Position numbers and translations under genes: made by a program. This document shows, one piece after another, positions 16,308 to 45,615 of a stretch of 64,000 bases of DNA (position 1 is the first letter of the stretch; each line of letters starts with the position of its first letter). Origin of the DNA: Actinomycetospora lemnae (GTDB lineage Bacteria > Actinomycetota > Actinomycetes > Mycobacteriales > Pseudonocardiaceae); contig NZ_JAQZAO010000012.1 in NCBI RefSeq assembly GCF_028737315.1, forward strand, positions 1 to 64,000. The letters run 5' to 3'. The notes under the pieces are model-generated. The model worked only from the letters and a program-made list of their open reading frames with translations. It did not search any database and was not told the DNA's origin.

Positions 16308-16326
16308 CTCGTCCTGCGCGGGTGAG
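16308..16326. promoter_or_regulatory. CTCAyCC-N5-GGrTGAG site (one mismatch)
   Basis: CTCGTCC TGCGC GGGTGAG, 60 bp upstream of the DUF7144 start at 16387, which has its own GGAGGAGA ribosome site. It is a member of the recurrent palindrome described in the findings. Confidence 0.55.
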
Positions 16327-16386
16327 GCACGCGCCCGCGGCGCCGCGACACGCTGGGTCGTCGTCGAGGCGAGGAGGAGAGACGCG

Positions 16387-16848
16387 ATGGCCGACACGAA
16401 GCGCACCCCGGCACAGTGGGTGGACGCGATCTACTGGCGGGAGCCGCAGTCGTACGGCACCGACGTCGACGACCGGACCCCCTGGATCCGCTTCGCCGCC
16501 GTGATGATGATGCTGATCGGCGCGTTCGCCGTGATCCAGGGCCTGGTCGCGCTGCTGAGCCCCGACTTCTACGTGACGAACGGCGACGGCCGCGTGCTCG
16601 TCGTCCTGTCCGCCGCAGGCTGGGGCTGGGTCCACCTCGTGCTCGGCGTGCTCGTCGCCGCGGCCGGTGTCGGGGTCCTCGCCGACCAGCTGTGGGCGCG
16701 GGTGGTGGGGATCGTCCTCGCCGCGATCAGCGTCGTGGTCAACCTGGCGTTCATCGCGGCCTACCCGATGTGGGCGGTCGTCGTCATCGCCCTCGACGTC
16801 GCGGTGATCTGCGCGCTGGTGGTCGGCCGCCGGTTCCCCCGCACCTGA
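16387..16848 (+). CDS. DUF7144 family membrane protein (copy 1)
   Basis: 153 residues with four predicted transmembrane helices: 'FAAVMMMLIGAFAVIQGLVA', a second from GWGWVHLVLGVLVAAAGVGV, a third VVGIVLAAISVVVNLAFIAA, and 'WAVVVIALDVAVICALVVG'. The conserved pattern of helix 1 (IGAFAVIQG) and helix 3-4 (YPMWAVVVIALD) defines the family. A paralogue of the same length is at 21342. The N-terminal 30 residues are soluble and acidic/basic mixed. Function unknown; the paired inverted-repeat operators and stress-type neighbours suggest an envelope stress role. Confidence 0.82.
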   Translation: MADTKRTPAQWVDAIYWREPQSYGTDVDDRTPWIRFAAVMMMLIGAFAVIQGLVALLSPDFYVTNGDGRVLVVLSAAGWGWVHLVLGVLVAAAGVGVLADQLWARVVGIVLAAISVVVNLAFIAAYPMWAVVVIALDVAVICALVVGRRFPRT

Positions 16849-16852
16849 GGGC

Positions 16853-16910
16853 GCCGGACAGCACCGCCGGACAGCACCGCCGGACAGCACCCCGGGGTGC
16901 TGTCCGGCGG
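16853..16910. terminator. Triplicated 13-bp repeat ending in a perfect 34-bp palindrome, bidirectional terminator
   Basis: GCCGGACAGCACC is repeated three times head-to-tail (16853, 16866, 16879). The last copy forms, with its inverted partner, a loop-less perfect palindrome: CCGCCGGACAGCACCCC at 16877-16893 and its complement at 16894-16910. It lies between the convergent DUF7144 and SHOCT genes. The extra upstream copies could pair alternatively with the same 3' arm. Confidence 0.75.
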
Positions 16911-16915
16911 GCCGC

Positions 16916-17236
16916 TCAGCCGAGGATCCGGCGCTTCTGCTCCTCGAACTCCGCGTCGGTCAGCACGCCCTGGCTGCGCAGCTCCGCGAGCTCCTTGAGC
17001 TGGCTGATCGTGTCGCCGCCGCCACCCGCGGGTGGTGGGGGCGGCGGAGGCGCGGACGAGGGCTGCGGTTCGTACGGCGGTGGATACGACGGCGGTGGAT
17101 ACGACGGCGGCGGGGCGGACGCGGCCTCCTGGGCCGCCCACCGCCCGGCCTGGCGGCGCGAGACGCGGTTCGACACCGCGGTCGCCGTGCCCGCCACCAG
17201 CGCGGTCCGTGCGAGTCCCCGCAACAGTCCCGGCAT
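16916..17236 (-). CDS. SHOCT-domain protein with proline-rich linker
   Basis: 106 residues. N-terminal 'MPGLLRGLARTALVAGTATA' is a weakly hydrophobic segment, then a low-complexity PPPSYPPPSYPPPYEP-type proline/tyrosine linker (about 45-75), then a C-terminal SHOCT motif 'LKELAELRSQGVLTDAEFEE'. SHOCT is a short oligomerisation domain found at protein termini. It starts 6 bp after the DUF6325 gene on the same strand, so the two form an operon. Role unknown; the proline-rich linker may span the envelope (inference). Confidence 0.8.
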   Translation of the reverse strand: MPGLLRGLARTALVAGTATAVSNRVSRRQAGRWAAQEAASAPPPSYPPPSYPPPYEPQPSSAPPPPPPPAGGGGDTISQLKELAELRSQGVLTDAEFEEQKRRILG

Positions 17237-17241
17237 GTCCC

Positions 17242-17703
17242 TCACCCCGTCCCGTCCGCCCCGACGGCCGCGGGCGCGGCGTCGAGGGAGGCCATCACGA
17301 GGTCGACGGGGATCCGTCCCCCGGCGACCAGCTGCGCCCCGCCGCGGCGCAGCGCCGAGGCCAGCGGCGCCGCCCACACGTTCTCGTAGACGAGGACCAC
17401 CGCGGTCGCGCCCGGCGCCAGCACCGAGCCGGCCTCCGCGAGGTCGCCCTCGTCGAGCAGCCCGGACGCGGCGCCGTGGAACAGCGCGAGGTCGAGGGAC
17501 CCGTCGCCGTCGAGGTCGGCGATCTCGATCCGCGTCACCGAGCGGTCGTCCTCCTTGCGCAGGAAGACCAGGTCGAGGATGCGGATCAGGCCACGGTCCA
17601 CGAGGTCGAGCAGCAGGGGCAGGCCCTCGCCGGTCGCCGCGCCCGGGGGGAACTCGACGATCAGGTAGTCGATGGGCCCGGTGTCGGGCGGCTGGTCGTC
17701 CAC
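17242..17703 (-). CDS. DUF6325 family protein
   Basis: 153 residues, no membrane helix. 'GPIDYLIVEFPPGAATGEGL' at the start, 'LLDLVDRGLIRILDLVFLRK' and 'LVYENVWAAPLASALRRGGA' are the conserved blocks of DUF6325 proteins, which resemble the soluble part of DUF1269 proteins such as the one at 36448. These occur widely in actinobacterial stress loci but have no established function. It is co-transcribed with the SHOCT gene; the shared upstream region with the divergent YrhK-like gene holds a CTCAyCC-type palindrome. Confidence 0.78.
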   Translation of the reverse strand: MDDQPPDTGPIDYLIVEFPPGAATGEGLPLLLDLVDRGLIRILDLVFLRKEDDRSVTRIEIADLDGDGSLDLALFHGAASGLLDEGDLAEAGSVLAPGATAVVLVYENVWAAPLASALRRGGAQLVAGGRIPVDLVMASLDAAPAAVGADGTG

Positions 17704-17837
17704 GGTCTCCTCCTTCCGTCGGCCCCCGCACGTCGGGAGGCGGGGCCGTGCTCGACGCTCCCGTGCCGGCGACGCCGGGGCATCGCCCGCGGTGGGTGAC
17801 CGGGCGGGCCCGCCGACCCGGGCCGCCGGCCGGACCG

Positions 17838-17856
17838 ATCATCCCCGCCGGGTGAG
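17838..17856. promoter_or_regulatory. CTCAyCC-N5-GGrTGAG site (one mismatch)
   Basis: ATCATCC CCGCC GGGTGAG. It lies 49 bp before the YrhK-like start (17906) and 135 bp before the divergent DUF6325 start. TTGTCT at 17878-17883, in an AT-richer patch, could be the plus-strand -10. Confidence 0.55.
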
Positions 17857-17905
17857 CCGCGCGCGCCCGCGCGGTTGTTGTCTCGTGACACCGCCTGGAG
17901 GAGGG

Positions 17906-18190: not shown

Positions 18191-18193
18191 GCC

Positions 18194-19573: not shown

Positions 19574-19692
19574 CACGACGCCCCCGGGACCGTCGCCACC
19601 GGGATGGCGGTGCTCGAGGCCTCCCCCGTCATGCGGTCCAGGTCCGCCTCGATGACCCGGACGAACGGCGTCGCGCGGAGCACGGCCGTCAC
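19573..19692 (-). CDS. 39-residue small ORF coupled between MFS and ClC genes
   Basis: GTG at 19692 overlaps the MFS stop as GTGA, and its TGA overlaps the ClC ATG as TGATG. The peptide starts MTAVLRATPFVRVIEADLDR and ends IPVATVPGAS. It has no membrane helix and I do not recognise it. The precise overlaps on both sides argue that it is translated, at least to carry ribosomes from the MFS to the ClC gene; a free functional peptide is unproven. Confidence 0.5.
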   Translation of the reverse strand: MTAVLRATPFVRVIEADLDRMTGEASSTAIPVATVPGAS

Positions 19693-21194
19693 ACCGCGCC
19701 GCCCACCGGGCGCGCGTCCCGCTCCGGCGGCACCGGGATCGTGTGGGTCGTCGACGCGGCGGCGGCCGCCAGCTCGGCGGCGTTCGGCCGCGGCCGCCGG
19801 CCCGCGCGGCGGGCGAGCGGGATGCCCAGGACGCTGATGATCGCCAGCGCGATCACCGCGCGGGAGAAGGCGGTGGCCAGGGCGTCGGGAGGGGCGGCGC
19901 CGGCGGCGGTCCGCGCGGCGTCCGTCGAGGTGTAGATCCCGGAGACGATCGCGGTCACGACGGCGCCGCCGACGTAGCGGGCCATGTTCGAGATGCCCGA
20001 CGCCGCGCCGACCTGGGCCGGCGGCACCGCGGCCGTCGCGGCGGACGACGCGGGCCCGTTGGAGAAGCTCAGCCCGACGGCGACCGCGAGCAGGCCCGGC
20101 AGGAACCACAGGTAGGTCCACGAGGCGTCGACGAACGCCAGCGCGACGAACCCGCCGGTGAGCAGCACGAAGCCGAGCACCACGACGGGGCGGGCGCCGA
20201 TCTTGTGGGCGAGGGGCGTGATGACGGGCGCCGCCACGACGACGAGCGCGGCCACCGGCAGGCAGGCGAGCCCCGCCTCCAGGCTGCTCATGCCGAAAGC
20301 GACGGGGTCCTGGAAGTACAGGCTGAGGAGGAACGAGATGCCGGCGATCGCCCCGGCGCCGATGAGGATGGCGACCGTCGAGCCGACGAGCAGGGCGTTG
20401 CGCAGCAGCCCGAGGTCGACCAGGGGCGCGGGGACGCGGCGCTCGACGAGGACGAAGCCGACGGCCGCCAGGGCCGAGACGACGAAGCAGCCGATGGTCG
20501 CGGGCGAGCCCCAGCCCCACGTCCCGCCCTCGGTGATCCCGAAGACCAGGGGCGCGAGGATCGCCGCCACGAGGACGGTGCCCCAGAGGTCGATCGAGCG
20601 GGGACGGTCCGGGTCGCGCGACTCGGGGACCGCGGCGAGGACCCACGGGATGCAGGCCGCGGCGATCGCGGCGTCGATCCAGAACAGGCCCTGCCAGCCC
20701 GTCGCCTCCGCGAGCACGCCGCCGACCACCGGGCCCGCGGCGGCCCCGGCCGCCGAGGCGGCGCCCCACAGCGTCACCGCGCGCAGCCGCGCCGGTCCCT
20801 CGGTGGCGACCGAGAGCAGCGACAGCCCCGTCGCGAGGATGGCGGCGCCGGACGCGCCCTGGATCACGCGCCCGAGCACGACCACCTCGCCCGTGGGCGC
20901 CAGGGCGATGAGCACGCAGGACGCCACGAAGAGGCCCAGCCCGGCCACGAACATCAGGCGGCGCCCGAAGACGTCGCCCATGGCCCCCGTGGTGACGATG
21001 GTGGCCGCCCCGACCAGGAGGTAGCCGGTCACCGCCCACTGCAGCAGCGAGATCGGCGCCGCGAGGTCGGTGCTGATCGAGGGCAGCAGGATGCTCACCG
21101 CCGAGGTGTTGGCGTTCACCACGAACGTCGAGAGGCAGCTCGTCGCGAGCACGCTGCCCGCCCCCCGGATCCTGGGCGCCTCCGTGTCGGTCAT
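19689..21194 (-). CDS. DHA2-type MFS drug/proton antiporter
   Basis: 501 residues, 14-helix EmrB/QacA layout. 'LLQWAVTGYLLVGAATIVTT' with 'GAMGDVFGRRLMFVAGLGLF' gives motif A; 'LGRVIQGASGAAILATGLSL' is motif B; 'AGAAAGPVVGGVLAEATGWQ' is motif C of antiporters. It exports hydrophobic compounds through the cytoplasmic membrane. First gene of a three-gene minus-strand operon (MFS, 39-aa ORF, ClC). The ATG at 21194 lies 34 bp from the nearer of two CTCAyCC palindromes shared with the divergent DUF7144 gene. Confidence 0.9.
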   Translation of the reverse strand: MTDTEAPRIRGAGSVLATSCLSTFVVNANTSAVSILLPSISTDLAAPISLLQWAVTGYLLVGAATIVTTGAMGDVFGRRLMFVAGLGLFVASCVLIALAPTGEVVVLGRVIQGASGAAILATGLSLLSVATEGPARLRAVTLWGAASAAGAAAGPVVGGVLAEATGWQGLFWIDAAIAAACIPWVLAAVPESRDPDRPRSIDLWGTVLVAAILAPLVFGITEGGTWGWGSPATIGCFVVSALAAVGFVLVERRVPAPLVDLGLLRNALLVGSTVAILIGAGAIAGISFLLSLYFQDPVAFGMSSLEAGLACLPVAALVVVAAPVITPLAHKIGARPVVVLGFVLLTGGFVALAFVDASWTYLWFLPGLLAVAVGLSFSNGPASSAATAAVPPAQVGAASGISNMARYVGGAVVTAIVSGIYTSTDAARTAAGAAPPDALATAFSRAVIALAIISVLGIPLARRAGRRPRPNAAELAAAAASTTHTIPVPPERDARPVGGAV

Positions 21195-21228
21195 GCGGCG
21201 AGCCTGCGGCCCCGGCCGGGGTCCTCGC

Positions 21229-21277
21229 CTCATCCACTCCGGGTGAGTCCCGGCCCGTCTCATCCGGTTGGGGTGAG
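21229..21277. promoter_or_regulatory. Two CTCAyCC-N5-GGrTGAG palindromes in a divergent promoter
   Basis: Site 1 (21229-21247) is CTCATCC ACTCC GGGTGAG; site 2 (21259-21277) is CTCATCC GGTTG GGGTGAG. Both fit the consensus fully and are offset by 30 bp, i.e. on the same helix face. They lie between the MFS gene (minus) and DUF7144 copy 2 (plus) and could control both. Confidence 0.7.
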
Positions 21278-21341
21278 GTCCGCGAGCCCGCCGCGGAGCA
21301 CCGTCGGCCACCACGATCCGAGGTGTGCCCTGGAGGAGATC

Positions 21342-21803
21342 ATGACCGAACAGCAGACCCCGCCGGTCTCGGGACCGACGATGACGCCCCGTGCGAACGG
21401 GAGGACGGCTCCCCGCGACTCGGGCGCCTGGACGGGGTGGGTCCGCTTCGGCGGCGTCGTGATGACGATCATCGGCGGCTTCGCGGTGATCCAGGGCTTC
21501 TTCGCGCTGTTCTCGCCGACCTACGTGACGCTGACGGGCGCGGGCGTCCTGTTGCTCGACCTCACGGCGTGGGGCTGGCTGCACATCCTGCTCGGCGCCC
21601 TGGTGCTGGCCACCGGCCTGGCCCTCGTGGGCAGCGCGCCGGGCTGGGCCCGCGGCACGGCCATCGTGCTGCTCGCGCTCAACACGATCGTGCAGCTGGC
21701 CTACATGCCCGCCTACCCGATCTGGTCGCTCGTCCTCATCGTCCTCGACATCGTCGTGATCTTCGCGCTCATGGTCACGTGGGACGAGGCCTCCGCCTAC
21801 TGA
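21342..21803 (+). CDS. DUF7144 family membrane protein (copy 2)
   Basis: 153 residues, same length as copy 1 at 16387. Four helices: 'FGGVVMTIIGGFAVIQGFFA', 'WGWLHILLGALVLATGLALV', 'GTAIVLLALNTIVQLAYMPA', 'IWSLVLIVLDIVVIFALMV'. Start ATG 21342 follows GGAGGAGA. The identical IIGGFAVIQG / YPIWSLVLIVLD framework and similar operators show a duplicated gene whose copies diverged. The stop codon lies inside a 12-bp tandem repeat, so slippage would alter or keep the end without frameshift. Function unknown. Confidence 0.82.
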   Translation: MTEQQTPPVSGPTMTPRANGRTAPRDSGAWTGWVRFGGVVMTIIGGFAVIQGFFALFSPTYVTLTGAGVLLLDLTAWGWLHILLGALVLATGLALVGSAPGWARGTAIVLLALNTIVQLAYMPAYPIWSLVLIVLDIVVIFALMVTWDEASAY

Positions 21804-22487: not shown

Positions 22488-22492
22488 TCGCC

Positions 22493-23061: not shown

Positions 23062-23834
23062 GGGGCCCCTGGCGCGACGTACCGGGCGGGTCGTTCCTCC
23101 ACGGCGACCCGCCGGGTCGCCTCGTGCACGTCGACGGACTGCGCCTCGCGGCGTACACGGTCACCAACGTCGAGTTCCTCGCGTTCGTCCGGGCCACCGG
23201 CTACGTGACGAGCGCCGAGGCGTACGGCTGGTCGTTCGTGTTCGCGGGCCTGCTCCCCGACGGCCTGCCCCCGACCCGCGGCGTCGTGGACGCGCCGTGG
23301 TGGCGCCGGGTCGCCGGCGCCTGCTGGTGGCGTCCCGAAGGGCCCGGCTCCGCCGTGGCGCGGCGCCCCGACCACCCCGTCGTGCACGTGTCCTTCGACG
23401 ACGCCGTCGCCTACTGCCACTGGGCCGGGGTCCGGCTGCCCACCGAGGTCGAGTGGGAGCGCGCCGCCCGCGGCGGGCACGAGGGCCGGCGTTTCCCGTG
23501 GGGCGACGAGCTCACGCCCGGCGGGGAGCACCGCATGAACGTCTTCCAGGGCACCTTCCCGACCCACGACACCGGCGACGACGGGTACGTCGGGACCGCC
23601 CCGGTGACCGCGTTCGCCCCCAACGACTACGGGCTCCACCAGACCACGGGCAACGTCTGGGAGTGGTGCGCCGGTCCCGACCCCGCCGTCGCGACGCCCA
23701 CGCGGGGCCTGCGCGGCGGGTCCTACCTCTGCCACGCCTCCCACTGCGAGCGCTACCGGTGCGCCGGCCGCACCGAGAGCGGGCCCGACAGCAGCGCGGG
23801 CAACGTCGGGTTCCGGGTCGCCGCCCGGGCCTGA
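23058..23834 (+). CDS. Formylglycine-generating enzyme (sulfatase-modifying factor)
   Basis: 258 residues. FGE-sulfatase fold: 'WRDVPGGSFLHGDPPG' start, 'YTVTNVEFLAFVRATGY', 'RLPTEVEWERAARGG', 'NVWEWCAG', and the C-terminal catalytic block 'RGGSYLCHASHCERYRCAGR' with both copper-binding cysteines in the canonical LCxxSxC spacing, then PDSSAGNVGFRV. FGE oxidises a cysteine in CxPxR of sulfatases to formylglycine. The likely client is the sulfatase at 24235, which has Cys in that motif. Start GTG 23058 overlaps the DUF3040 stop by 4 bp. No signal peptide. Confidence 0.92.
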   Translation: MRGPWRDVPGGSFLHGDPPGRLVHVDGLRLAAYTVTNVEFLAFVRATGYVTSAEAYGWSFVFAGLLPDGLPPTRGVVDAPWWRRVAGACWWRPEGPGSAVARRPDHPVVHVSFDDAVAYCHWAGVRLPTEVEWERAARGGHEGRRFPWGDELTPGGEHRMNVFQGTFPTHDTGDDGYVGTAPVTAFAPNDYGLHQTTGNVWEWCAGPDPAVATPTRGLRGGSYLCHASHCERYRCAGRTESGPDSSAGNVGFRVAARA

Positions 23835-23835: not shown

Positions 23836-24042
23836 CTACCGGTCCAGCGGGTGCGCCTCGACGACCGTGAGCCCGAGCAGGCGCAGCTGTTCGAGGATGC
23901 CGTGCAGGTGGGCGTCGTCGACGACGGTGCCGCGCAGCACCGCGCCGGGCCGGACCTCCTCGACGTCCATGTCGCAGAACGCCTCGCGGGCGGTCCCCGT
24001 GAGCAGGCCGTCGACCCGGAACTCGTAGCGCCGATCGGTCAT
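23836..24042 (-). CDS. Small conserved protein, paralogue of the gene at 36203
   Basis: 68 residues: 'YEFRVDGLLTGTAREAFCDM' then a segment with 'VRPGAVLRGTVVDDAHLHGI' and 'LEQLRLLGLTVVEAHPL'. It aligns along its length with the 71-residue product at 36203 (FEIRVSGRLSDRARAAFADM; VHGILDRIQELGLELVSLR). It looks like a single alpha/beta domain; similar small proteins are common in actinobacteria without known function. It lies between FGE and sulfatase on the opposite strand, with a CTCACCC half-palindrome 54 bp from its ATG. Confidence 0.7.
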   Translation of the reverse strand: MTDRRYEFRVDGLLTGTAREAFCDMDVEEVRPGAVLRGTVVDDAHLHGILEQLRLLGLTVVEAHPLDR

Positions 24043-24096: not shown

Positions 24097-24154
24097 CTCA
24101 CCCGCCGAGGATGGTCCGGGGCCCGGCCGGTCCCGTTCATCCCGGTGGGGTGAG
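24097..24154. promoter_or_regulatory. CTCAyCC-type sites upstream of the sulfatase gene
   Basis: 24136-24154 is TTCATCC CGGTG GGGTGAG (one mismatch), 80 bp before the sulfatase ATG. 24097-24115 is CTCACCC GCCGA GGATGGT, a good left arm and a degraded right arm, nearer the divergent small gene. Confidence 0.55.
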
Positions 24155-24234
24155 CCCGGACGTCACCGGGCCCGCGACGGTCGAGGACCGACAGGGGGCC
24201 CGCCGGCCCCCGCGGACCCGGGAGAACACCGACG

Positions 24235-26601
24235 ATGAGCCCGTCCGACCCTGCGCGGAGCATCCTGCCGATCCCCGACCGTCCCGCTCCCGGGCTCACG
24301 ACCTACGACGCCAAGGACCCCGACACGGCGTTCGCGCCCATCGAGCCGCTGCTCCCCCCGGCCGGCGCGCCGAACGTGGTGGTCGTCCTGCTCGACGACG
24401 TCGGCTTCGGGGCCTCGTCGACCTTCGGCGGACCCTGCCGCACCCCCACCGCCGACCGGCTGGCCGCGCGCGGCCTGCGCTACAACCGCTTCCACACGAC
24501 GGCGCTCTGCGCGCCCACCCGGCAGGCCATGCTGACCGGGCGCAACCACCACTCCGTCGGCATGGGCAGCGTCACCGAGACGGCGACCGCCGCGCCGGGC
24601 TACAGCTCCGTGCGGCCGAACACCAAGGCCCCGCTGGCGCTGACGCTCAAGCTCAACGGCTACTCGACGGCCCAGTTCGGCAAGTGCCACGAGGTGCCCG
24701 TCTGGCAGACCTCCCCGGTGGGCCCGTTCGACGCCTGGCCGACGGGCGGCGGCGGGTTCGAGACCTTCTACGGCTTCATCGGCGGCGAGAACAACCAGTG
24801 GGAGCCCTCGCTCTACGACGGCACGACCCCGGTGGATCCGCCGCGGACCCCCGAGGAGGGCTACCACCTCACCGAGGACCTCGCCGACCGCGCCACCGCC
24901 TGGATGCGCCAGCAGAAGGCCCTCGCCCCGGAGCGGCCCTTCTTCCTCTACTTCGCGCCCGGCGCCACGCACGCCCCCCACCACGTGCCGAGGGAGTGGG
25001 CCGACCGCTACCGCGGCGAGTTCGACGACGGGTGGGACGCCGCGCGCGAGCGCACCTTCGCCCGGCAGAAGGAGGCGGGGGTGGTCCCGCCGGAGGCCGA
25101 GCTGACCGAGCGGCACGAGGAGATCCCGGCCTGGGACGAGATCCCCGACGATCTCAAGCCCGTGCTGGCCCGCCAGATGGAGGTCTACGCGGGCTTCCTG
25201 GAGCACACCGACCACCAGGTCGGCCGTCTCGTCGACACCCTCGACGACCTGGGGATCCTCGACGACACGCTGGTGTTCTACATCGTCGGGGACAACGGGG
25301 CGTCCGCGGAGGGGACGCTGCAGGGCGCGTTCAACGAGATGGCCAACTTCAACGGCATGGCCGCGCTGGAAACGACCGAGTTCCTGCGCAGCACGATGGA
25401 CCGGCTCGGCTCGCCGGAGTCCTACAACCACTACGCGGTGGGCTGGGCGTGGGCGATGTGCACGCCCTTCCGGTGGACCAAGCAGGTGGCCTCGCACTGG
25501 GGCGGCACCCGCAACGGCACGGTCGTGCACTGGCCCCGGGGCATCACCGACCCGGGCGGCCTGCGCTCGCAGTTCACCCACGTCATCGACCTGGCCCCCA
25601 CGATCCTCGAGGCCGCCGGCATCCCCGAGCCGACCGCCGTCAACGGCGTGCAGCAGTCCCCGATGGAGGGGACGAGCATGCTCTACACCTTCACCGAGCC
25701 GGACGCGGCGGAGCGCCACGACCTGCAGTACTTCGAGATGGTCGGCAACCGCGGCGTCTACCACCGGGGCTGGAGCGCGGTGACCAAGCACCGCACGCCC
25801 TGGCTGATGATCGGTCACCAGCCGCCGCCGTTCGACGAGGACGTCTGGGAGCTCTACGACGGGGACAGCGACTACAGCCAGGCCCGCGACCTCGCCGCCG
25901 ACAAGGCCGAGGTCCTCGCGCACCTCCAGCGGCTGTGGCTCATCGAGGCGACCAAGTACGGGGTGCTCCCGCTCGACGACCGGGCGGCCGAGCGCCTCGA
26001 GCCGACCATGGCGGGGCGGCCGACCCTGATCCGGGGCAGCTCGCAGCTCTTCTTCCCGGGCATGGGGCGGCTCTCGGAGAACAGCGTGCTCAGCATCAAG
26101 AACCGCTCGTTCGCGGTGACCGCGGAGATCGACGTCCCGGACGGCGGAGCGAACGGGGTCCTCATCGCGCAGGGTGGGCGGTTCGGTGGCTGGTCGGTCC
26201 ACCTGTCCGAGGGCCGGCCGACGTTCTGCTACAACGTGCTCGGCATCCGGATCTTCACGGTGCGCGGGGACGCGCCCGTGCCCGCCGGCCTCCACCGGGT
26301 ACGGGCCGAGTTCGCGTACGACGGCGGCGGCCTGGGCAAGGGCGGGGACGTGTCCCTGTCCGTCGACGGCACGGCGAGCGGGTCGGGCCGGGTCGAGATG
26401 ACGCAGCCCGTGGTCTTCTCGGCGGACGAGACGGCCGACATCGGACGGGACGAGGGCACGCCGGTCAGCCCCGACCACACGGCGGCGACGAGCCGGTTCA
26501 CCGGGCGGATCCACTGGGTCGCGCTCGACGTCGGCGAGGACGCCCACGACCACCACCTCGACCCCGAGGAGCGGCTGCGCATCGCCATCGCCCGCCAGTA
26601 G
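24235..26601 (+). CDS. Arylsulfatase, formylglycine (Cys) type
   Basis: 788 residues. 'NVVVVLLDDVGFGASSTFGG' supplies the paired metal aspartates (Asp54-Asp55); 'HTTALCAPTRQAMLTGRNHH' contains the CxPxR modification motif with Cys92 and the second signature LTGR. 'YIVGDNGASAEGTLQGAFNE' and the C-terminal 'AVTAEIDVPDGGANGVLIAQ' beta-domain complete the long arylsulfatase form. It hydrolyses sulfate esters after formylglycine formation by the neighbouring FGE. No signal peptide or lipobox is visible, so it seems cytoplasmic. A palindromic operator stands upstream. Confidence 0.92.
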   Translation: MSPSDPARSILPIPDRPAPGLTTYDAKDPDTAFAPIEPLLPPAGAPNVVVVLLDDVGFGASSTFGGPCRTPTADRLAARGLRYNRFHTTALCAPTRQAMLTGRNHHSVGMGSVTETATAAPGYSSVRPNTKAPLALTLKLNGYSTAQFGKCHEVPVWQTSPVGPFDAWPTGGGGFETFYGFIGGENNQWEPSLYDGTTPVDPPRTPEEGYHLTEDLADRATAWMRQQKALAPERPFFLYFAPGATHAPHHVPREWADRYRGEFDDGWDAARERTFARQKEAGVVPPEAELTERHEEIPAWDEIPDDLKPVLARQMEVYAGFLEHTDHQVGRLVDTLDDLGILDDTLVFYIVGDNGASAEGTLQGAFNEMANFNGMAALETTEFLRSTMDRLGSPESYNHYAVGWAWAMCTPFRWTKQVASHWGGTRNGTVVHWPRGITDPGGLRSQFTHVIDLAPTILEAAGIPEPTAVNGVQQSPMEGTSMLYTFTEPDAAERHDLQYFEMVGNRGVYHRGWSAVTKHRTPWLMIGHQPPPFDEDVWELYDGDSDYSQARDLAADKAEVLAHLQRLWLIEATKYGVLPLDDRAAERLEPTMAGRPTLIRGSSQLFFPGMGRLSENSVLSIKNRSFAVTAEIDVPDGGANGVLIAQGGRFGGWSVHLSEGRPTFCYNVLGIRIFTVRGDAPVPAGLHRVRAEFAYDGGGLGKGGDVSLSVDGTASGSGRVEMTQPVVFSADETADIGRDEGTPVSPDHTAATSRFTGRIHWVALDVGEDAHDHHLDPEERLRIAIARQ

Positions 26602-36104: not shown

Positions 36105-36123
36105 TTCACCTGCCCGGGATGAG
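36105..36123. promoter_or_regulatory. CTCAyCC-N5-GGrTGAG site (two mismatches)
   Basis: TTCACCT GCCCG GGATGAG, 29 bp after the LAL-3 stop and 79 bp before the small gene at 36203. Confidence 0.45.
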
Positions 36124-36202
36124 GCGGGCGCACCGTTCCCGCGACGAGCATCGGGACCGTCGGCGGCCGACCGGGCCCCGTGGGAGAGGCGAGGAGACGG
36201 CG

Positions 36203-36418
36203 GTGGCGGGACGCTTCGAGATCCGGGTCAGCGGGCGGCTCTCCGACCGGGCGCGGGCCGCCTTCGCGGACATGGCCGTCGTCGAGGTGCCCGCGGAGAC
36301 CGTCCTGTCGGGCTGGTCGCACGACGCCGACGAGGTGCACGGGATCCTCGACCGCATCCAGGAGCTGGGGCTCGAGCTGGTCTCGTTGCGGCAGGTCCGG
36401 GAGTCGGGCGACGCCTGA
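36203..36418 (+). CDS. Small conserved protein, paralogue of the gene at 23836
   Basis: 71 residues: 'GRFEIRVSGRLSDRARAAFA' then 'VVEVPAETVLSGWSHDADEV' and 'HGILDRIQELGLELVSLRQV'. Full-length similarity to the 68-residue product at 23836 shows a duplicated family. GAGGAGA before GTG 36203 sets the start; an upstream ATG at 36119 would add an implausible arginine-rich leader. The order of a short beta-strand, helix and second strand suggests a small alpha/beta domain. Function unknown; both copies have CTCAyCC-type sites upstream. Confidence 0.7.
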   Translation: MAGRFEIRVSGRLSDRARAAFADMAVVEVPAETVLSGWSHDADEVHGILDRIQELGLELVSLRQVRESGDA

Positions 36419-36447: not shown

Positions 36448-36960
36448 TCAGGCCTTCACCGGCTCCTGCTCGTCGACGTCGGAGAACACCTCACGCAGCT
36501 GCGTCTCCTGGTCGCTCGAGAGGTTGGTGTGCAGCAGCTCGGCGTGACTGCCGCGGAACGCGTCGGCGACCTTGTCGGTGACGGCGTTCGCGGTCAGGGC
36601 GAACAGCGCCGACGTTCCCGGCGTCACCTTGGAGCGCACGTCGTCGATGAAGTCGTCGTCGATCCCGACGTCCGACATCGCCCCGGCGGCGGCGCCGGCC
36701 GCGGCGCCGACGACGAGCCCGAGCAGCGGGACGAAGAAGATCAGGCCGAACAGCAGGCCCCAGAAGCTGCCGCCGAGGGCACCGCCGCCCGCCAGGTTGT
36801 GCAGCTGCCGGGTCTTCGGCCGCTTGCGGTCGGCGGGCCAGGTCACGACGGCCGCGTCCAGGACCTGGATCAGCTCCTCCTTCTGGAGCCGTTCGAGCGT
36901 CGCGAGCGCCTGGTCCGCCCCCTCCGGGGTCGGGAACTTCCACGCGGTCAGGGTCGCCAT
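36448..36960 (-). CDS. DUF1269 family protein with glycine-zipper membrane segment
   Basis: 170 residues. Starts 'MATLTAWKFPTPEGADQALA' and 'LIQVLDAAVVTWPADRKRPK', then a glycine/alanine-rich membrane hairpin 'GGALGGSFWGLLFGLIFFVP' and 'LGLVVGAAAGAAAGAMSDVG', then 'DDFIDDVRSKVTPGTSALFA' and a C-terminal acidic tail. This is the DUF1269 pattern; members are membrane-associated and of unknown function. It begins 3 bp after the BrkB-like gene. A CTCAyCC palindrome lies 99 bp upstream, inside the 3' end of that gene. Confidence 0.85.
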   Translation of the reverse strand: MATLTAWKFPTPEGADQALATLERLQKEELIQVLDAAVVTWPADRKRPKTRQLHNLAGGGALGGSFWGLLFGLIFFVPLLGLVVGAAAGAAAGAMSDVGIDDDFIDDVRSKVTPGTSALFALTANAVTDKVADAFRGSHAELLHTNLSSDQETQLREVFSDVDEQEPVKA

Positions 36961-36963: not shown

Positions 36964-37941
36964 TCATCCTCCTCGGTGCCACGGGCCGCCCTCGGGCACC
37001 GGCGCGATCGACGGCGCGGAGGGCTCGCCCGGACTCTCGCCGCGGGCGTCGCCCGCGACCTCATCCGCGCGGGGTGAGCCCGCCGGCGGACGGGCGGGGA
37101 GGCCGACCGCCACGAAGTGACCCACGAGCGCGCCGCCCAGCATCACGACCCCGAAGGCCACGAACCACGACAGCAGCACGAAGACGATCCCGAGCGGCCC
37201 GTACTGTCGGTAGTGCGACGTGATCGCCGGCGACAGCACGAGCGTCGCGGCGAGCCGCAGACCCACGAGCCCGAGGCCGATGAGCACGGCGCCCGGCAGC
37301 AGGCGCGGCCACGGGACGCGGCCGGCCAGCAGGAGGTACTGGGTCCACCACGCCCAGGCGATCGCGAGCGGGGTCCCGACGGCGAGGACCACGACGAGCC
37401 ACACGACCCCCTCGAGGACCGGATCCACGAGCGCAGCCGCCCCGACGATCGCGAGGAAGCCCAGCAGCCAGACGAGGGGACGCCACAGCGCGCGGACGGT
37501 GCCGTGGGGCACGTCCCACACGAGCTCGTACCCGCGCTGGAGCGCGAGCGGCCAGCGCACGGTGAGGACCACGGTCAGGACCAGCCCGATCCCGGTCGTG
37601 GCCCCGGAGACGGTCGCGGTGGTGGGGAAGAGCTGCTGCAGGTCGTGGGCGGCCTGCGGGGTCAGCCCGAGCCGGCGGACGAGCCCGGCCACGGCGCCGT
37701 CGGGCTCGCCGAGCGGCACGACCGCGGCGAGGGTGACCAGGGCGGGGACCACGAGCATGAGGGCGAGGGCGGCGAGGAGCAGGGCCTGCCTGGTGAGCTG
37801 CACGTCGACGATCCGGCGCGTGAGCACGCCGACCGACGACGCCTCGTAGCGCGTCCGCGTGTCCCGCAGACGGTCGCGCCAGGCGGGCGGCGCACCGGGG
37901 TCGTCGGGGCCGCCGTCGGGCGGGCCGGTGGGGATGGTCAT
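36964..37941 (-). CDS. YihY/BrkB-family inner membrane protein
   Basis: 325 residues with about six helices: 'ALLLAALALMLVVPALVTLA' through 'YGPLGIVFVLLSWFVAFGVV' and 'LGGALVGHFVAVGLPARPPA'. The conserved W-Y-x(n)-G-hydrophobic last helix pair and the position of helices fit YihY/BrkB (once annotated as RNase BN). A soluble proline-rich C-terminal tail of about 40 residues follows. Middle gene of a three-gene minus operon (hypothetical membrane protein, BrkB, DUF1269). Role in envelope homeostasis is unproven. Confidence 0.8.
   Translation of the reverse strand: MTIPTGPPDGGPDDPGAPPAWRDRLRDTRTRYEASSVGVLTRRIVDVQLTRQALLLAALALMLVVPALVTLAAVVPLGEPDGAVAGLVRRLGLTPQAAHDLQQLFPTTATVSGATTGIGLVLTVVLTVRWPLALQRGYELVWDVPHGTVRALWRPLVWLLGFLAIVGAAALVDPVLEGVVWLVVVLAVGTPLAIAWAWWTQYLLLAGRVPWPRLLPGAVLIGLGLVGLRLAATLVLSPAITSHYRQYGPLGIVFVLLSWFVAFGVVMLGGALVGHFVAVGLPARPPAGSPRADEVAGDARGESPGEPSAPSIAPVPEGGPWHRGG
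37060..37078. promoter_or_regulatory. CTCAyCC-N5-GGrTGAG site (perfect) inside the brkB-like 3' end
   Basis: CTCATCC GCGCG GGGTGAG matches the consensus fully. It lies in the coding sequence for the low-complexity tail of the BrkB-like protein, 99 bp upstream of the DUF1269 ATG, so it could drive an internal promoter. Confidence 0.5.
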
Positions 37942-37950: not shown

Positions 37951-38472
37951 TCAGTGCAGCGCGGCCTTGAGCAGCACGATCGCCGATCCGACGAGCAGCG
38001 AGGCGACGGCCCACGCGAGCTGGACGGCGGGGCGACGGCGTGCCGCTCGCCCGCCCAGCAGGCTCAGCACCGCGAGCGCGGCCACCCCGACCCAGAGCGT
38101 GATGTCGATCAGCGGGCCGGCATCGAGCCCCGTGACGGTCAGCACGACCAGGATCACCCCCGCGGCGACGCCCGGCAGCGCCGTGCCGAGACAGTCCGCG
38201 ACCACGGCCCGCAGGATCCGCCGCCCCGAGTGCGGTCGCCCGGTGAGCGTGCGGGCGAGCACGCCCGCGTAGGTCTCCGCGAGGAAGATCACGACGCCCG
38301 TGCCCGCCACGGTCACGGCCGCCACCCCCGGCCGTGGGTCGTAGTCGCCCAGGTAGGCGAGCACCGACATCGCCATCAGGGTGCCGTAGGTCGTGGCGCG
38401 CAACCGGTCGTGCTTCAGGACCGCCGGCGTGCGGGTCGCGGCCGTCGACGGGGCGTCCGGGGACGTGGTCAC
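37951..38472 (-). CDS. Hypothetical membrane protein, first gene of BrkB operon
   Basis: 173 residues with four to five helices, including 'LRATTYGTLMAMSVLAYLGD', 'VAAVTVAGTGVVIFLAETYA', 'VAAGVILVVLTVTGLDAGPL' and 'LAWAVASLLVGSAIVLLKAA'. GGAGGAG seven bases before GTG 38472 sets the start; a longer in-frame reading to 38529 lacks a ribosome site. I do not recognise the family. It is 9 bp upstream of the BrkB-like gene, and divergent from AI-2E with a perfect palindrome between. Confidence 0.65.
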   Translation of the reverse strand: MTTSPDAPSTAATRTPAVLKHDRLRATTYGTLMAMSVLAYLGDYDPRPGVAAVTVAGTGVVIFLAETYAGVLARTLTGRPHSGRRILRAVVADCLGTALPGVAAGVILVVLTVTGLDAGPLIDITLWVGVAALAVLSLLGGRAARRRPAVQLAWAVASLLVGSAIVLLKAALH

Positions 38473-38558
38473 GCTGTCTCCTCCGGGGTGGACGGGACGG
38501 GCGGACGCCCGGCGGGAGGGCGCGACCACGGACGCTAGGCAGCGGCCGCCGCCCGGTG

Positions 38559-38577
38559 CTCACCCCGCACGGGTGAG
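38559..38577. promoter_or_regulatory. CTCAyCC-N5-GGrTGAG site (perfect palindrome)
   Basis: CTCACCC CGCAC GGGTGAG, arms exactly complementary. It ends 21 bp before the TAGCGT -10 (38599-38604) of the AI-2E gene, so a bound protein would touch the -35 region, typical of activators. It also faces the divergent BrkB operon 86 bp away. Confidence 0.7.
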
Positions 38578-38598: not shown

Positions 38599-38604
38599 TA
38601 GCGT
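38599..38604 (+). promoter_or_regulatory. TAGCGT -10 element of the AI-2E gene
   Basis: Ends 8 bases before the ATG at 38613; with no Shine-Dalgarno present, the transcript is probably leaderless. Confidence 0.5.
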
Positions 38605-38612
38605 CGCCGGGC

Positions 38613-39875
38613 ATGTCGACCATCACCGCGACGACGGGCACCGCGACGACCGGCACCGACTCGCGGGCACCACGCGCCGGGGTCCCCCGTGCCCTGATGC
38701 TGCTGCTCGGTGCGGCGGCCATCGTCATCGTCATCGCCGGCCTGCAGGCCGGCGCGTGGCTCGTCGCGCCGATCCTGCTCGCCCTGGTGATCGTGATCGC
38801 GGTCAGCCCGATCCAGTCCTGGATGCGGCGCCGGGGCCTGCCCGGGTGGTCGACCGTGCTCACCCTGCTGGTGGTGATCTTCGCTGTCATCGTCGGCCTG
38901 GTCTGGGTGCTGCTGGCGTCGGTCGGGCAGCTCATCGCCCTGGTGCCGCAGTACTCCGGCCAGATCCAGCAGACGACCGCCTCGATCTCACGGCTGCTCA
39001 CCCAGGCCGGGTTCAACCCCGAGCAGGCCCGGGCCGCCGCGTCGTCGGTGGACGTCGGTCAGATCGCGTCCGTGGTCGGCGGCCTGCTCTCCGGGGTGAG
39101 CGGCGCGCTGACGAGCCTGGTGTTCATCCTCGCCCTCATCCTCTTCCTCGTCGCCGAGGCCGGGGGCGCCAGCCGGCGCCTGGCGGCCATCGGCGCCGAC
39201 CGGCCCCACATGGTCGAGGCCATGCAGAGCTTCGCCCAGGGCACGCGGCGCTACCTCGTCGTCACCGCGGTGTTCGGGCTGATCGTCGCGGTCCTCGACT
39301 CGATCGCGCTCGCGATCATGGGCATCCCGCTGGTGGTGCTGTGGGGGCTGCTGTCGTTCATCACGAACTTCATCCCGAACATCGGCTTCATCATCGGGGT
39401 CATCCCGCCGGCGTTCGTCGCGCTGCTCGTGGGCGGCTGGCAGCTCGCGCTCGCGGTGGTGGTCGTCTACATCATCCTCAACGCCGTCGTGCAGTCGCTC
39501 ATCCAGCCGCACTTCACCGGCGACGCCGTCGGGCTCTCCACGACCATCACGTTCGTGGCCCTGCTCTTCTGGGCCTGGATCCTCGGCCCGCTCGGGGCCC
39601 TGCTGGCGATCCCGGCCACGCTGCTGATCAAGGCGGTGCTGGTCGACTGCGACCCGAGCGCGCGCTGGGTCGAGGCCCTCATCGGCGCCAACAGCCCGCC
39701 GAAGCCGGAGAAGCCGGGCGCCGGGACGGCCGCGACGGACGATGCGGCCGCCGAGCGTGACGTGGCCGCCACCGACGGTACTGCCGACGGCGCTCCCGAC
39801 AGCGCTCCCGACAGCGCTCCCGACGGCGGCCCCGAACGCGGCACGCCCGCGCACCGCGCGGCACCGGTGACCTGA
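38613..39875 (+). CDS. AI-2E family membrane transporter
   Basis: 420 residues. Eight-helix AI-2E/UPF0118 fold: 'AAAIVIVIAGLQAGAWLVAP' and 'ILLALVIVIAVSPIQSWMRR', central amphipathic region 'AQGTRRYLVVTAVFGLIVAV', then 'LVVLWGLLSFITNFIPNIGF' with the P-N-I-G-F-I motif and 'VVVYIILNAVVQSLIQPHFT' with the QP motif. Family members export signalling molecules or exchange Na+/H+. A disordered C-terminus with DSAPDSAPDGGP repeats comes from a 12-bp tandem repeat around 39791-39830. Leaderless start at ATG 38613. Confidence 0.9.
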   Translation: MSTITATTGTATTGTDSRAPRAGVPRALMLLLGAAAIVIVIAGLQAGAWLVAPILLALVIVIAVSPIQSWMRRRGLPGWSTVLTLLVVIFAVIVGLVWVLLASVGQLIALVPQYSGQIQQTTASISRLLTQAGFNPEQARAAASSVDVGQIASVVGGLLSGVSGALTSLVFILALILFLVAEAGGASRRLAAIGADRPHMVEAMQSFAQGTRRYLVVTAVFGLIVAVLDSIALAIMGIPLVVLWGLLSFITNFIPNIGFIIGVIPPAFVALLVGGWQLALAVVVVYIILNAVVQSLIQPHFTGDAVGLSTTITFVALLFWAWILGPLGALLAIPATLLIKAVLVDCDPSARWVEALIGANSPPKPEKPGAGTAATDDAAAERDVAATDGTADGAPDSAPDSAPDGGPERGTPAHRAAPVT

Positions 39876-41555: not shown

Positions 41556-41574
41556 CGGTCGCAGTCTGCCCCGC

Positions 41575-42342: not shown

Positions 42343-42355
42343 CGGGGGCGGCTGC

Positions 42356-42361
42356 TAGCTT
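42356..42361 (+). promoter_or_regulatory. TAGCTT -10 element, probable leaderless promoter
   Basis: Ends 7 bases before the ATG at 42369. No ribosome site is present. Confidence 0.5.
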
Positions 42362-42368
42362 CGCCGCC

Positions 42369-42713: not shown

Positions 42714-42718
42714 GCGCG

Positions 42719-43513: not shown

Positions 43514-43528
43514 GACGGAGAACCTGCC

Positions 43529-44101
43529 CTACACCGGCCGTCCGAGCAGCGCGAGGAGCACGTCGCGGGGCTCGTCGCTGCGCGGGGTCACCGGGGCGGC
43601 CCACAGCCCGGGGCCGGTGAGCATGACCGGCTCGCCGCGGACGTACGCGAGCGCGCGGTCCACGCCGACCGGGTCGAGCTCCTCGTCGAGGCCGGCGCCG
43701 CGCGCGAGGTCCCACTCGTGGACGGTGAGGTCGAGCAGCATCTGCTCGGCGTACTCCTCGACCGGGATCCACCCGAACGACGTGTGCACGCGGGGGGCGT
43801 GGGTGTCGGTCGCCGTCCAGGCCGGCCGCGACCGGGCGACGGCGCGCTCCCACGCACCCCGCGGGTCGCCCTGGAGCAGGTCGCCCTCGTAGCGGTCGCC
43901 GACCACGTCCATCGTCGTGCCCGCCAGGACGTGCGGTGCCCAGAGGTGCTCGAGGCAGAGGTGCGCGACGAGGTCGCCGACGGTCCACGCGGTGCACGGG
44001 CTCGGCGCGGCCCAGGCGTCGGGGCGCACGGCGCGGACCCGGGCGGTGACGCGGTCCACGGCGCCGGGGAGGAGGGGGCGGGCGTCGGCGGTGTCGGTCA
44101 C
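43529..44101 (-). CDS. TIGR03086 / DinB-fold maleylpyruvate isomerase-like protein
   Basis: 190 residues. 'SPCTAWTVGDLVAHLCLEHL' is the TIGR03086 start (C-x-x-W-x-V-x-x-L-x-x-H), and 'YAEQMLLDLTVHEWDLARGA' supplies the second histidine block (TVHxWDLAR). The two His blocks form the metal site of the four-helix DinB fold. Mycothiol-dependent reactions are known for relatives. Starts with GTG 44101; it is 15 bp upstream of the enoyl-CoA hydratase on the same strand, so probably an operon. Confidence 0.82.
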   Translation of the reverse strand: MTDTADARPLLPGAVDRVTARVRAVRPDAWAAPSPCTAWTVGDLVAHLCLEHLWAPHVLAGTTMDVVGDRYEGDLLQGDPRGAWERAVARSRPAWTATDTHAPRVHTSFGWIPVEEYAEQMLLDLTVHEWDLARGAGLDEELDPVGVDRALAYVRGEPVMLTGPGLWAAPVTPRSDEPRDVLLALLGRPV

Positions 44102-44153
44102 GGACGCCGACCCTGCTCCTCGCCGGCCGCGCCGTCGAGAGCACCCCGGACGG

Positions 44154-44390
44154 TCAGTCGCGCGGGGCCGCGACGAGCACGCCGACGGGTGCCGCGGTGG
44201 GGATCGTCCGCTCGAGGCGCAGGCCGGCGCGGTCGAGGAGGGCCGCGTACTCCCGCTCGGTGCGCTCCCGGCCCCCGACCAGGGCGATCATCATGATGTC
44301 GAGCAGCTTGCCGACGTGCGGCTCGTCGCCCTCGGGCAGCACCACCTCGAGGACGAGCAGGCGACCGGCCGCGTCCATGGCCGTGCGCAC
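44154..44390 (-). pseudogene. C-terminal remnant of an O-methyltransferase
   Basis: 78 codons: 'MDAAGRLLVLEVVLPEGDEP' then 'KLLDIMMIALVGGRERTERE', 'YAALLDRAGLRLERTIPTAA' and a normal C-terminus. This is the last fifth of a PF00891-type (hydroxyneurine/acetylserotonin-like) O-methyltransferase of about 340 residues; the dimerisation domain and the SAM-binding GxGxG part are missing. Nothing coding for them is found in the ~90 bp upstream in any frame. I read it as a deletion remnant; expression of the fragment cannot be excluded. Confidence 0.7.
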
Positions 44391-44479
44391 GTTCCTCGCT
44401 GAACACGCCGCGCGAGGACGAGCGCGGCGGGGGCCGCGAGAGCGTCACGATTCGACCCGCGGGGTCGCCGGACGCGCGG

Positions 44480-45556
44480 CTACTGGCGCGCCGGGGTGAG
44501 CCCGCTCGTCGGGAGGTGGAGGGTCAGGCGCACCGTCGTCCCGTCGCGGGGGTCGCTGTGGACCTGCACGAGGTCGCAGAGCTGGTGGGCCAGCCGCAGG
44601 CCGTAGCCCCGGCCCTCGGCGGGGCCGCAGGGGTGGCGCCCGACGAGCGGGTCGGCGATCCAGCCGCTGTCCTGCACCTCGCAGACCACGGCGGCCGGCT
44701 CCACCGCCTCCCAGCCCGGCGCGCCCGCGCCACGGGTCCACAGCGCGAGGAGGCCCGGGCGCCCGGTGTGCACCACGGTGTTCACCGCGACCTCGTAGGC
44801 GGCCAGGGCGAGGTCTGCGGCCCGGTCCTCGTCGAGCCCGGCGCGCAGCGCGTGCTCGACGACGGCGGTGCGCACCGTGCGTGGCCCGGTCGGCGCGCTG
44901 AACACGAGCGTCTCGCCGAGCTCGGTCGGCTCGGCGAGCGGCCCGGCGACGCCCTGCGCGAGCTCGGTGGGGTCGACGTAGCGCCCGCTCGACGTGGTGT
45001 GCCCGTGCTCGACGAGGACGGGGTGCGTGCGCTGCGCGTCGGCGATCGCGGCGGGGGCGAGTGCGGTGGTGTCGTACGGGCAGAGCACGGTCGCCGGGCG
45101 GTCGGCGAGCGCGACGTTGATGAGGGCCTCGTGCTGGACCGCGGCGGCGTACTCCTGCGGGCTGCGCCCGGCCCAGATCGGTTCGCCGATGATGCGCACC
45201 CGCCCACGGTCGGCGTGCTCGTCGACGAACGCCCGCAGGACCCCGGCGATGATGCGGCCGGGGTTGCGACCGGCGAGCGTCATGTCGTGGAGGGCGACCC
45301 GCGCCGCGAGCGGGCCCAGGGCGTCCTCCACGAGGGCGAGACGGCTGGGCGGCGCGGCCATCATGACGGGCTCGTCGCGCTCCAGACCCTCGCGCAGGAA
45401 GGGGACCGTCCCGGCGACGTAGGCGTCGTCGTCGGCGTAGAACAGGGCCGGGTGGACGAGCGTGCCGGCCCCGCCGTCGCGGCTCGACGACGCGTGCGCG
45501 TGTCCGGCACTCACTGCAGCGACTCCGTGGTGTCGAGGTCCTGGCGCCGCCATCAT
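44480..45556 (-). CDS. MEDS-domain plus HATPase regulator (RsbA/anti-sigma type)
   Basis: 358 residues. N-terminal MEDS-like domain: 'LVHPALFYADDDAYVAGTVP' to 'RVRIIGEPIWAGRSPQEYAA', then 'CPYDTTALAPAAIADAQRTH'. C-terminal serine-kinase-like HATPase: 'DLALAAYEVAVNTVVHTGRP' (N-box), 'VVCEVQDSGWIADP' (G1 D-x-G), 'GRGYGLRLAHQLCDLV' (G2). This is the RsbA/anti-sigma arrangement used in actinobacterial stress signalling. ATG 45556 is the first start; GTG 45514 is an alternative. A CTCAyCC-like site is 40 bp upstream. Confidence 0.85.
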   Translation of the reverse strand: MMAAPGPRHHGVAAVSAGHAHASSSRDGGAGTLVHPALFYADDDAYVAGTVPFLREGLERDEPVMMAAPPSRLALVEDALGPLAARVALHDMTLAGRNPGRIIAGVLRAFVDEHADRGRVRIIGEPIWAGRSPQEYAAAVQHEALINVALADRPATVLCPYDTTALAPAAIADAQRTHPVLVEHGHTTSSGRYVDPTELAQGVAGPLAEPTELGETLVFSAPTGPRTVRTAVVEHALRAGLDEDRAADLALAAYEVAVNTVVHTGRPGLLALWTRGAGAPGWEAVEPAAVVCEVQDSGWIADPLVGRHPCGPAEGRGYGLRLAHQLCDLVQVHSDPRDGTTVRLTLHLPTSGLTPARQ

Positions 45557-45596
45557 GCCTGGTCCAGGGCCTGATCACCGCCCTCACCCGCCGGTT

Positions 45597-45615
45597 CTCA
45601 CCGACCACGGGCGAG
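45597..45615. promoter_or_regulatory. CTCAyCC-like site (two mismatches)
   Basis: CTCACCG ACCAC GGGCGAG, with another left half-site CTCACCC at 45583-45589. Located 40 bp upstream of the MEDS/HATPase start on the minus strand. Confidence 0.4.

What the first reader, a model, noticed from the sequence alone, without database searches (positions are those of the whole stretch)
16308..45615. Recurrent palindrome CTCAyCC-N5-GGrTGAG defines an undescribed stress-island regulon
Four exact sites (21229, 21259, 37060, 38559) and at least five near matches with one or two changes (16308, 17838, 24136, 36105, 45597) always have 7-bp arms and a 5-bp spacer. All but 37060 lie in gaps upstream of genes of one kind: DUF7144 (twice), YrhK-like/DUF6325, MFS, sulfatase, the 68-71 aa family, DUF1269, AI-2E/BrkB, MEDS-ATPase. 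At AI-2E the site ends 21 bp before the -10, an activator position; two sites at 21229/21259 are 30 bp apart. A rough composition-based expectation (about 74% GC, independent bases) is far below one exact site per 64 kb. I do not know this motif from described regulons.
Basis: partly seen in the sequence, partly recalled or inferred. Interest (0 to 1): 0.82.

Follow-up and report, generated by a model that had tools for sequence, protein, structure and literature searches.

The report
MalT-type LAL activator regulon in Actinomycetospora
The repeated palindrome is real: it looks like an activator-binding site set at a fixed distance before the promoters of an island of poorly understood membrane and small-protein genes, and it matches a motif already reported for a MalT-like regulator in Actinoplanes, though its spread and gene set here seem unreported.

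Summary
CTCAyCC-N5-GGrTGAG occurs 5 times exactly in the 6.06-Mb genome, 4 of them in the window, control 0. In 18 genomes of the genus (most likely Actinomycetospora) there are 40 exact places, control 0. Of 99 sites, 92 are outside called genes. Of 140 arms that face a gene, 92 have a -10-like NANNNT 21 or 22 bp away; other offsets average 2.1: a class-II activator layout. The one 'coding' site, 37060, is the DUF1269 promoter, lying in the end of BrkB.

The motif is not undescribed. Droste et al. 2020 (PMC7567727) report TCATCC-5nt-GGATGA over the -35 region of 17 start sites in an Actinoplanes region activated by a MalT-like LAL. The window has three LALs. Of 77 loci fetched by LAL protein alone, 73 carry the core with at most one mismatch, over several Actinomycetota families.

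Best reading: operator of MalT-like LAL activators. New, as far as I searched: Pseudonocardiaceae and wider spread, a recurring core (DUF7144, DUF1269, a 68-71-aa family, the LAL itself, AI-2E) and symmetric divergent promoters. Which LAL acts, the signal and any stress role are unproven.

The parts
16308..16326 (.). operator, 1 mismatch; -10-like CACGCT at 16349-16354 facing DUF7144a
16387..16848 (+). DUF7144 gene (a)
   Evidence: Pfam PF23636
17242..17703 (-). DUF6325 gene
17838..17856 (.). operator, 1 mismatch, between DUF6325 (-) and YrhK (+); no -10-like box at 20-23 bp
   Evidence: 1-mismatch site at the same place in L057
17906..18190 (+). YrhK-like gene
19689..21194 (-). MFS transporter gene
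21229..21247 (.). exact operator; -10-like CAGGCT (minus strand, 21201-21206) facing MFS
21259..21277 (.). exact operator; -10-like CACCGT at 21299-21304 facing DUF7144b
21342..21803 (+). DUF7144 gene (b); start moved from my caller's 21462 to the in-frame ATG at 21342 behind GGAGGAG (inference from sequence)
23836..24042 (-). 68-aa protein of the 68-71-aa family
   Evidence: no Pfam or NCBIfam hit; cluster
24136..24154 (.). operator, 1 mismatch; -10-like GACGGT at 24176-24181 facing sulfatase, and CATCCT (minus strand, 24108-24113) facing the 68-aa gene
24235..26601 (+). sulfatase gene
26810..29350 (+). LAL1, large LuxR-type regulator
   Evidence: GerE; AAA_22 just below cut-off
30605..33301 (+). 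LAL2; of the three the one that groups with the Actinoplanes LALs in the tree
   Evidence: MalT ATPase part (8bob) E 1.6e-34; tree
33328..33346 (.). possible operator, 2 mismatches, before LAL3; -10-like CACCCT at 33369-33374; none listed before LAL3 in the relatives fetched
33404..36076 (+). LAL3
   Evidence: GerE; similarity to the N-terminal half of the MalT profile
36105..36123 (.). operator, 2 mismatches; -10-like GAGCAT at 36146-36151; a 2-mismatch site at the same place in six relatives
36203..36418 (+). 71-aa protein of the 68-71-aa family
36448..36960 (-). DUF1269 gene
36964..37941 (-). BrkB-like membrane protein gene
37060..37078 (.). exact operator inside the end of BrkB; -10-like GAGAGT (minus strand, 37033-37038) facing DUF1269
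   Evidence: 1-mismatch site at the same place in six relatives, intergenic in one of them (L055)
37951..38472 (-). 173-aa protein gene, no family
38559..38577 (.). exact operator with TAGCGT boxes at 21 bp on both sides (38599-38604 plus strand; 38532-38537 minus strand)
   Evidence: exact in six relatives
38613..39875 (+). AI-2E family transporter gene; its ATG lies 8 nt behind the -10 box, so possibly leaderless (inference)
44480..45514 (-). MEDS-HATPase gene
45597..45615 (.). weak operator candidate, 2 mismatches, no -10-like box; 1-mismatch site at the same place in L056

Best explanation
The palindrome (core TCAyCC-N5-GGrTGA) is the operator of one or more of the MalT-like LAL regulators of the island. 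Two LAL DNA-binding domains bind the two half-sites and activate transcription from a promoter whose -10 box lies 21 or 22 bp beyond the site; the site stands in for the -35 element, as at class-II activator promoters. Because the palindrome is symmetric, one site can serve two divergent promoters (38559), or two neighbouring sites can each serve one direction (21229 for MFS, 21259 for DUF7144). Shown here by sequence: motif, spacing, conservation, link to LAL genes. Shown elsewhere, in Actinoplanes, by deletion and overexpression: a LAL activates a region that carries this motif. Inferred: that the window's LALs bind it, which of the three does, dimer binding, and the inducing signal.
For: N5 is the only strongly enriched spacer, in motif-chosen loci and in 77 loci fetched by LAL protein only (33 exact and 69 one-mismatch, against 0-1 and 1-7 for spacers 0-4 and 6-10). 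Fixed -10-like box: 92 of 140 gene-facing arms; 201 of 311 in the LAL-fetched set, against 10 of 202 arms at wrong-spacer matches. Sites at the places of 36105, 37060 and 38559 in six relatives each (aligned in five, six and six). LAL link: 73 of 77 LAL loci carry the core with at most 1 mismatch; LAL matches against sites in the 15 genus genomes of at least 90% completeness, Spearman 0.82, against control motif -0.30. The site lies before a LAL gene 19 times under 11 genus labels. Published twin in Actinoplanes with genetics and mapped starts 34.4 +/- 1.0 nt from the motif, which fits the spacing here.
Against: No binding or expression data for this organism. 48 of 140 gene-facing arms lack the box, and in the LAL-fetched set 49 of 217 arms that face no called gene have it (missed genes could explain part). 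Within the genus the LAL link is not perfect: G010 (59% complete) has one exact site and no LAL match; G005, G011 and G017 have 1, 4 and 1 LAL matches and no exact site, and the G017 LAL locus holds only one 2-mismatch site, inside a gene. LAL matches count aligned segments, so the correlation is rough, and the whole island could travel together. LAL2 and LAL1/LAL3 lie in different parts of the tree, so they need not share an operator. Several Lentzea LAL loci hold up to 4 matches with a 6-bp spacer. Four of 77 LAL loci have no site.
Confidence: 0.86

Rival explanations
1. The site is bound by another regulator coded elsewhere (for example a NarL-type response regulator), and the LALs are merely among its targets.
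For: LAL genes themselves have the site in front (19 proteins under 11 genus labels), so they are targets as well; a palindrome of this size would also fit other LuxR-type (GerE) dimers (general knowledge).
Against: Sites track LAL genes at separate loci and in several families; the half-site GGATGA equals the MalT core hexamer (quoted); deleting a LAL in Actinoplanes lowers the motif-bearing region. Among the 30 island-region genes scanned, the LALs were the only DNA-binding family found; MarR and TetR genes lie outside, at 7.4-15.7 kb. A few small genes of the island were not scanned.
Confidence: 0.1
2. The site is a repressor operator over the -35 region.
For: It overlaps the -35 position.
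Against: With a usual 17-bp spacer the -35 hexamer would have to begin with the motif's own last bases AG, unlike TTGACA (deduced from the spacing), so an activator seems needed; the Actinoplanes twin is an activator.
Confidence: 0.03
3. Chance, repeat element or codon-driven palindrome.
For: At up to 3 mismatches the window is not above shuffles; 5 of the 8 off-window sites of the genome with at most 1 mismatch have no -10-like box and look accidental.
Against: 40 exact against 0 control in the genus; 5-bp spacer only; 92 of 99 sites outside called genes.
Confidence: 0.01

Closest known systems
[quoted passage not shown] SE50/110 (PMC7567727)
   Same: Palindrome TCATCC-5nt-GGATGA over the -35 region, fixed distance to the start site, one large region with two MalT-like LAL genes inside, many genes of unknown function; the authors already saw the motif in corresponding regions of four other Micromonosporaceae
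   Different: Another family (Pseudonocardiaceae), three LALs, C/T and G/A allowed at one position per arm, different gene set (sulfatase, AI-2E, BrkB, DUF7144); no arginine deiminase gene among the 50 window genes scanned; no maltose link known
E. coli MalT and MalT boxes
   Same: LAL/STAND activator; core GGA(T/G)GA; site near -35 (as quoted)
   Different: MalT boxes are described as repeats of one hexamer (their direct orientation is recalled), not a 5-bp-spaced palindrome; LAL2 and LAL3 score below the MalT equivalog cut-off
Streptomyces LALs SCO0877/SCO7173 (PMC3282765) and SCO6993 (PMC9628970)
   Same: LAL family
   Different: In the passages read no such palindrome is reported; the SCO6993 footprints gave no consensus

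Membership tests
Actinoplanes MalT-type LAL regulon | TCATCC-5nt-GGATGA palindrome upstream of many genes of one region | tested here: met
   with C/T and G/A variation at one position per arm
Actinoplanes MalT-type LAL regulon | fixed distance from motif to promoter, overlapping -35 | tested here: met
   -10-like box at 21/22 bp; start sites themselves not mapped here
Actinoplanes MalT-type LAL regulon | MalT-like LAL gene inside the region | tested here: met
   three
Actinoplanes MalT-type LAL regulon | shared gene content with that region | tested here: inconclusive
   Two other Actinoplanes LAL loci (L189, L193) each have two LALs, sites, and homologues of DUF1269, DUF6325 and MFS; L189 also BrkB and DUF7144 and a class-II glutamine amidotransferase as the published region does; the SE50/110 region itself was not fetched
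Actinoplanes MalT-type LAL regulon | LAL needed for expression; higher expression on maltose | not testable with these tools
   needs mutants and RNA
LAL (large ATP-binding LuxR-type) regulators | large size, N-terminal ATPase, C-terminal LuxR-type HTH | tested here: met
   846, 898 and 890 aa; GerE in all three; ATPase part: LAL2 clear (AAA_16; MalT 8bob), LAL3 by the MalT profile, LAL1 weak (AAA_22 25.7 against cut-off 27)
E. coli MalT equivalog | NF003420 score of at least 537 | tested here: not met
   LAL2 253.1, LAL3 200.8 bits; LAL1 not scanned
E. coli MalT box | repeat of single hexamers rather than a spaced palindrome | tested here: not met
   inverted arms at one spacer

The most novel reading that the evidence does not exclude
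A single operator code, TCAyCC-N5-GGrTGA with a -10 box at 21-22 bp, is used by a large branch of LAL/STAND regulators throughout Actinomycetota, and several LAL paralogues of one island share it. They would control a recurring core of unknown genes (DUF7144, DUF1269, the 68-71-aa family, AI-2E) that forms one undefined, widely kept physiological response; the paralogues may act together, each with its own signal.
Probability: 0.45. Interest if true: 0.68.

Novelty: new member of a known kind. Interest (0 to 1): 0.5.

Why it matters
LAL regulators are large STAND-type ATPases, numerous in actinobacteria, and few have known operators or targets (general knowledge). The site-plus-promoter rule lets their regulons be read from sequence, gives a ready test for which LAL acts, and puts several widespread families of unknown function (DUF1269, DUF7144, DUF6325, the 68-71-aa family) under one regulator type. 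It also widens a system described in one Actinoplanes strain and four relatives of Micromonosporaceae.

Tried and rejected
Set aside: the motif as undescribed (refuted by PMC7567727); 37060 as an accidental coding hit (recurs in six relatives, has a -10-like box, intergenic in L055); 24097 as a second full operator before sulfatase/68-aa (it recurs with 2 mismatches in relatives, but overlaps the -10 box facing the 68-aa gene, so unclear); LAL3 autoregulation through 33328 (no such site listed before LAL3 in the relatives). Everted arms gave 2 exact matches; one is the gap between two tandem sites (L061), the other lies in L137.

Literature: the listings (each shows only its top rows; no paper); among the rows shown, only PMC7567727 describes this motif. 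Of PMC7567727 I saw the abstract, results and discussion; of PMC3282765 and PMC9628970 passages; of the others listings only.

Limits: gene calls are from a home-made caller trained on the window; some starts are wrong (DUF7144b). Dropped before counting: duplicate sequence contexts and sites too near a locus end. Loci L032-L071 and L121-L140 were fetched because they hold the motif or a LAL, so exact counts there are biased; L141-L217 were fetched by LAL protein only, but overlap in part with the others (same species). L064-L071 were not used.
Full report
The sites. The pattern search confirms all nine coordinates. In the whole genome the exact pattern occurs five times, four of them in this window, against none for the reversed control. 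With up to two mismatches there are 72 places against 18. First-order Markov windows rarely hold even a one-mismatch site (mean 0.075 in 40 simulations; observed 7). At up to three mismatches the window is not unusual (22 against a shuffle mean of 15.3).

Identity of the genome. So the window is most likely from an Actinomycetospora species; its LALs stand beside those of A. straminea in the tree. Family Pseudonocardiaceae.

Relatives. In the genus there are 40 exact places in 13 of 18 genomes, control 0 (my sum), and 215 against 17 with up to one mismatch (sums). In 249 genomes of the family, genus included, 75 have an exact match; I count control matches in 4. In 149 genomes drawn over the phylum 14 have a match, the own genome included; 1 has a control match.

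Position. In 53 loci (window, L032-L063, L121-L140), 99 distinct sites with at most one mismatch were counted, 92 outside called genes. Aligning the flanks on the site shows one further element, NANNNT, starting 21 or 22 bp after the site: 92 of 140 arms that face a gene have it; other offsets average 2.1 and reach at most 7. Arms that face no gene start have it 7 times in 58 (sum of the two offsets). At 38559 the box is TAGCGT on both sides, so one palindrome can drive AI-2E and the divergent gene. At 21229 and 21259 each site has the box on one side only, facing MFS and DUF7144. At 37060 the box GAGAGT faces DUF1269. Sites 17838 and 45597 lack the box.

Conservation. Sites at the places of 36105, 37060 and 38559 stand in L038, L046, L054, L055, L056 and L062 (with 2, 1 and 0 mismatches). 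In the alignments the arms and the -10 box are among the best conserved columns while the spacer and much of the surroundings vary (36105 aligned without L056). In L055 the 37060 counterpart is intergenic, behind another gene. The pair 21229/21259 recurs in L053, L057 and L061 (both exact) and L047 (one exact, one with a mismatch); L039 shows one site. 16308 has no counterpart in L057, where the DUF7144a gene is also missing.

Which protein. Among the 30 island-region genes scanned, the three LALs were the DNA-binding ones. LAL3-like matches per genome follow the number of sites (Spearman 0.82 in 15 genomes; control motif -0.30), though matches count aligned segments. In G005, with a single LAL match, two one-mismatch sites flank it. 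Against: G017 has one LAL match and no nearby good site. Of 12 regions fetched from other genera because of the motif, 7 hold a LAL (L121, L122, L124, L128-L131), with DUF1269, DUF7144, AI-2E or the 68-71-aa family next to sites.

Test from the protein side. Only the 5-bp spacer stands out: 33 exact and 69 one-mismatch matches, against 0-1 and 1-7 for the ten other spacers tried. The core with up to one mismatch occurs at 264 distinct places in 73 of 77 loci, 28 of them inside called genes; 201 of 311 gene-facing arms have the -10-like box, 49 of 217 other arms, and 10 of 202 arms of wrong-spacer matches. Leaving Actinomycetospora out, 152 of 237. Reversed core: 5 matches in all. Taxa include Amycolatopsis, Lentzea, Rhodococcus, Nocardia, Modestobacter, Actinoplanes, Terrabacter and Nitriliruptoraceae. 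Proteins directly behind sites, clustered: DUF7144 (30 proteins, 9 genus labels), DUF1269 (28, 12), the 68-71-aa family (23, 10), the LAL itself (19, 11), AI-2E (16, 9); 41 of 263 stood alone (the labels split Amycolatopsis into two and MAGs are named by higher taxa, so label numbers are rough).

What is known. Droste et al. 2020 (PMC7567727; abstract, results and discussion read) found by MEME the palindrome 5'-TCATCC-5 nt-GGATGA-3' before 17 start sites of a 51-gene region of Actinoplanes sp. SE50/110, 34.4 +/- 1.0 bases from the start. Deleting the LAL gene ACSP50_3915 (their malT) lowered 42 of the 51 genes and overexpression raised 39; no direct binding test is described in the sections I read. 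They note the likeness to MalT boxes and the motif in four other Micromonosporaceae. The spacing here (22-23 nt from core end to the -10 box) predicts about the same start distance. Two other Actinoplanes LAL loci fetched here have homologues of the window's DUF1269, DUF6325 and MFS genes next to such sites.

Verdict. An activator regulon of a described kind, in a family for which my searches showed no report of it. The stress label is a guess; the signal is open.

Noticed in passing
L160-L171 (Lentzea LAL loci): Several Lentzea loci hold matches of the core with a 6-bp spacer (up to 4, in L160) beside the usual 5-bp ones; could be chance, a repeat, or a shifted operator.
   Followed up: no
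38599-38613 and 21194-21206: The -10-like boxes of AI-2E and MFS end 8 and 6 nt before the start codon, which suggests leaderless mRNAs.
   Followed up: partly
23836-24042, 36203-36418: A 68-71-aa protein family without any Pfam or NCBIfam hit is one of the commonest genes behind the site (23 proteins, 10 genus labels).
   Followed up: partly
L067:10033-10051, L125:1104-1162: An off-window site of the own genome with a -10-like box precedes an 80-aa gene whose relative in another genus (L125) stands behind two sites: a likely regulon member outside the island.
   Followed up: partly
23124-23834: A gene of the sulfatase-modifying factor (FGE) family lies close to the sulfatase gene.
   Followed up: no
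50389-50979: Nitrile hydratase alpha chain gene.
   Followed up: no
7918-9692: Neighbouring genes for a histidine-specific methyltransferase family protein and a 2OG-Fe dioxygenase.
   Followed up: no
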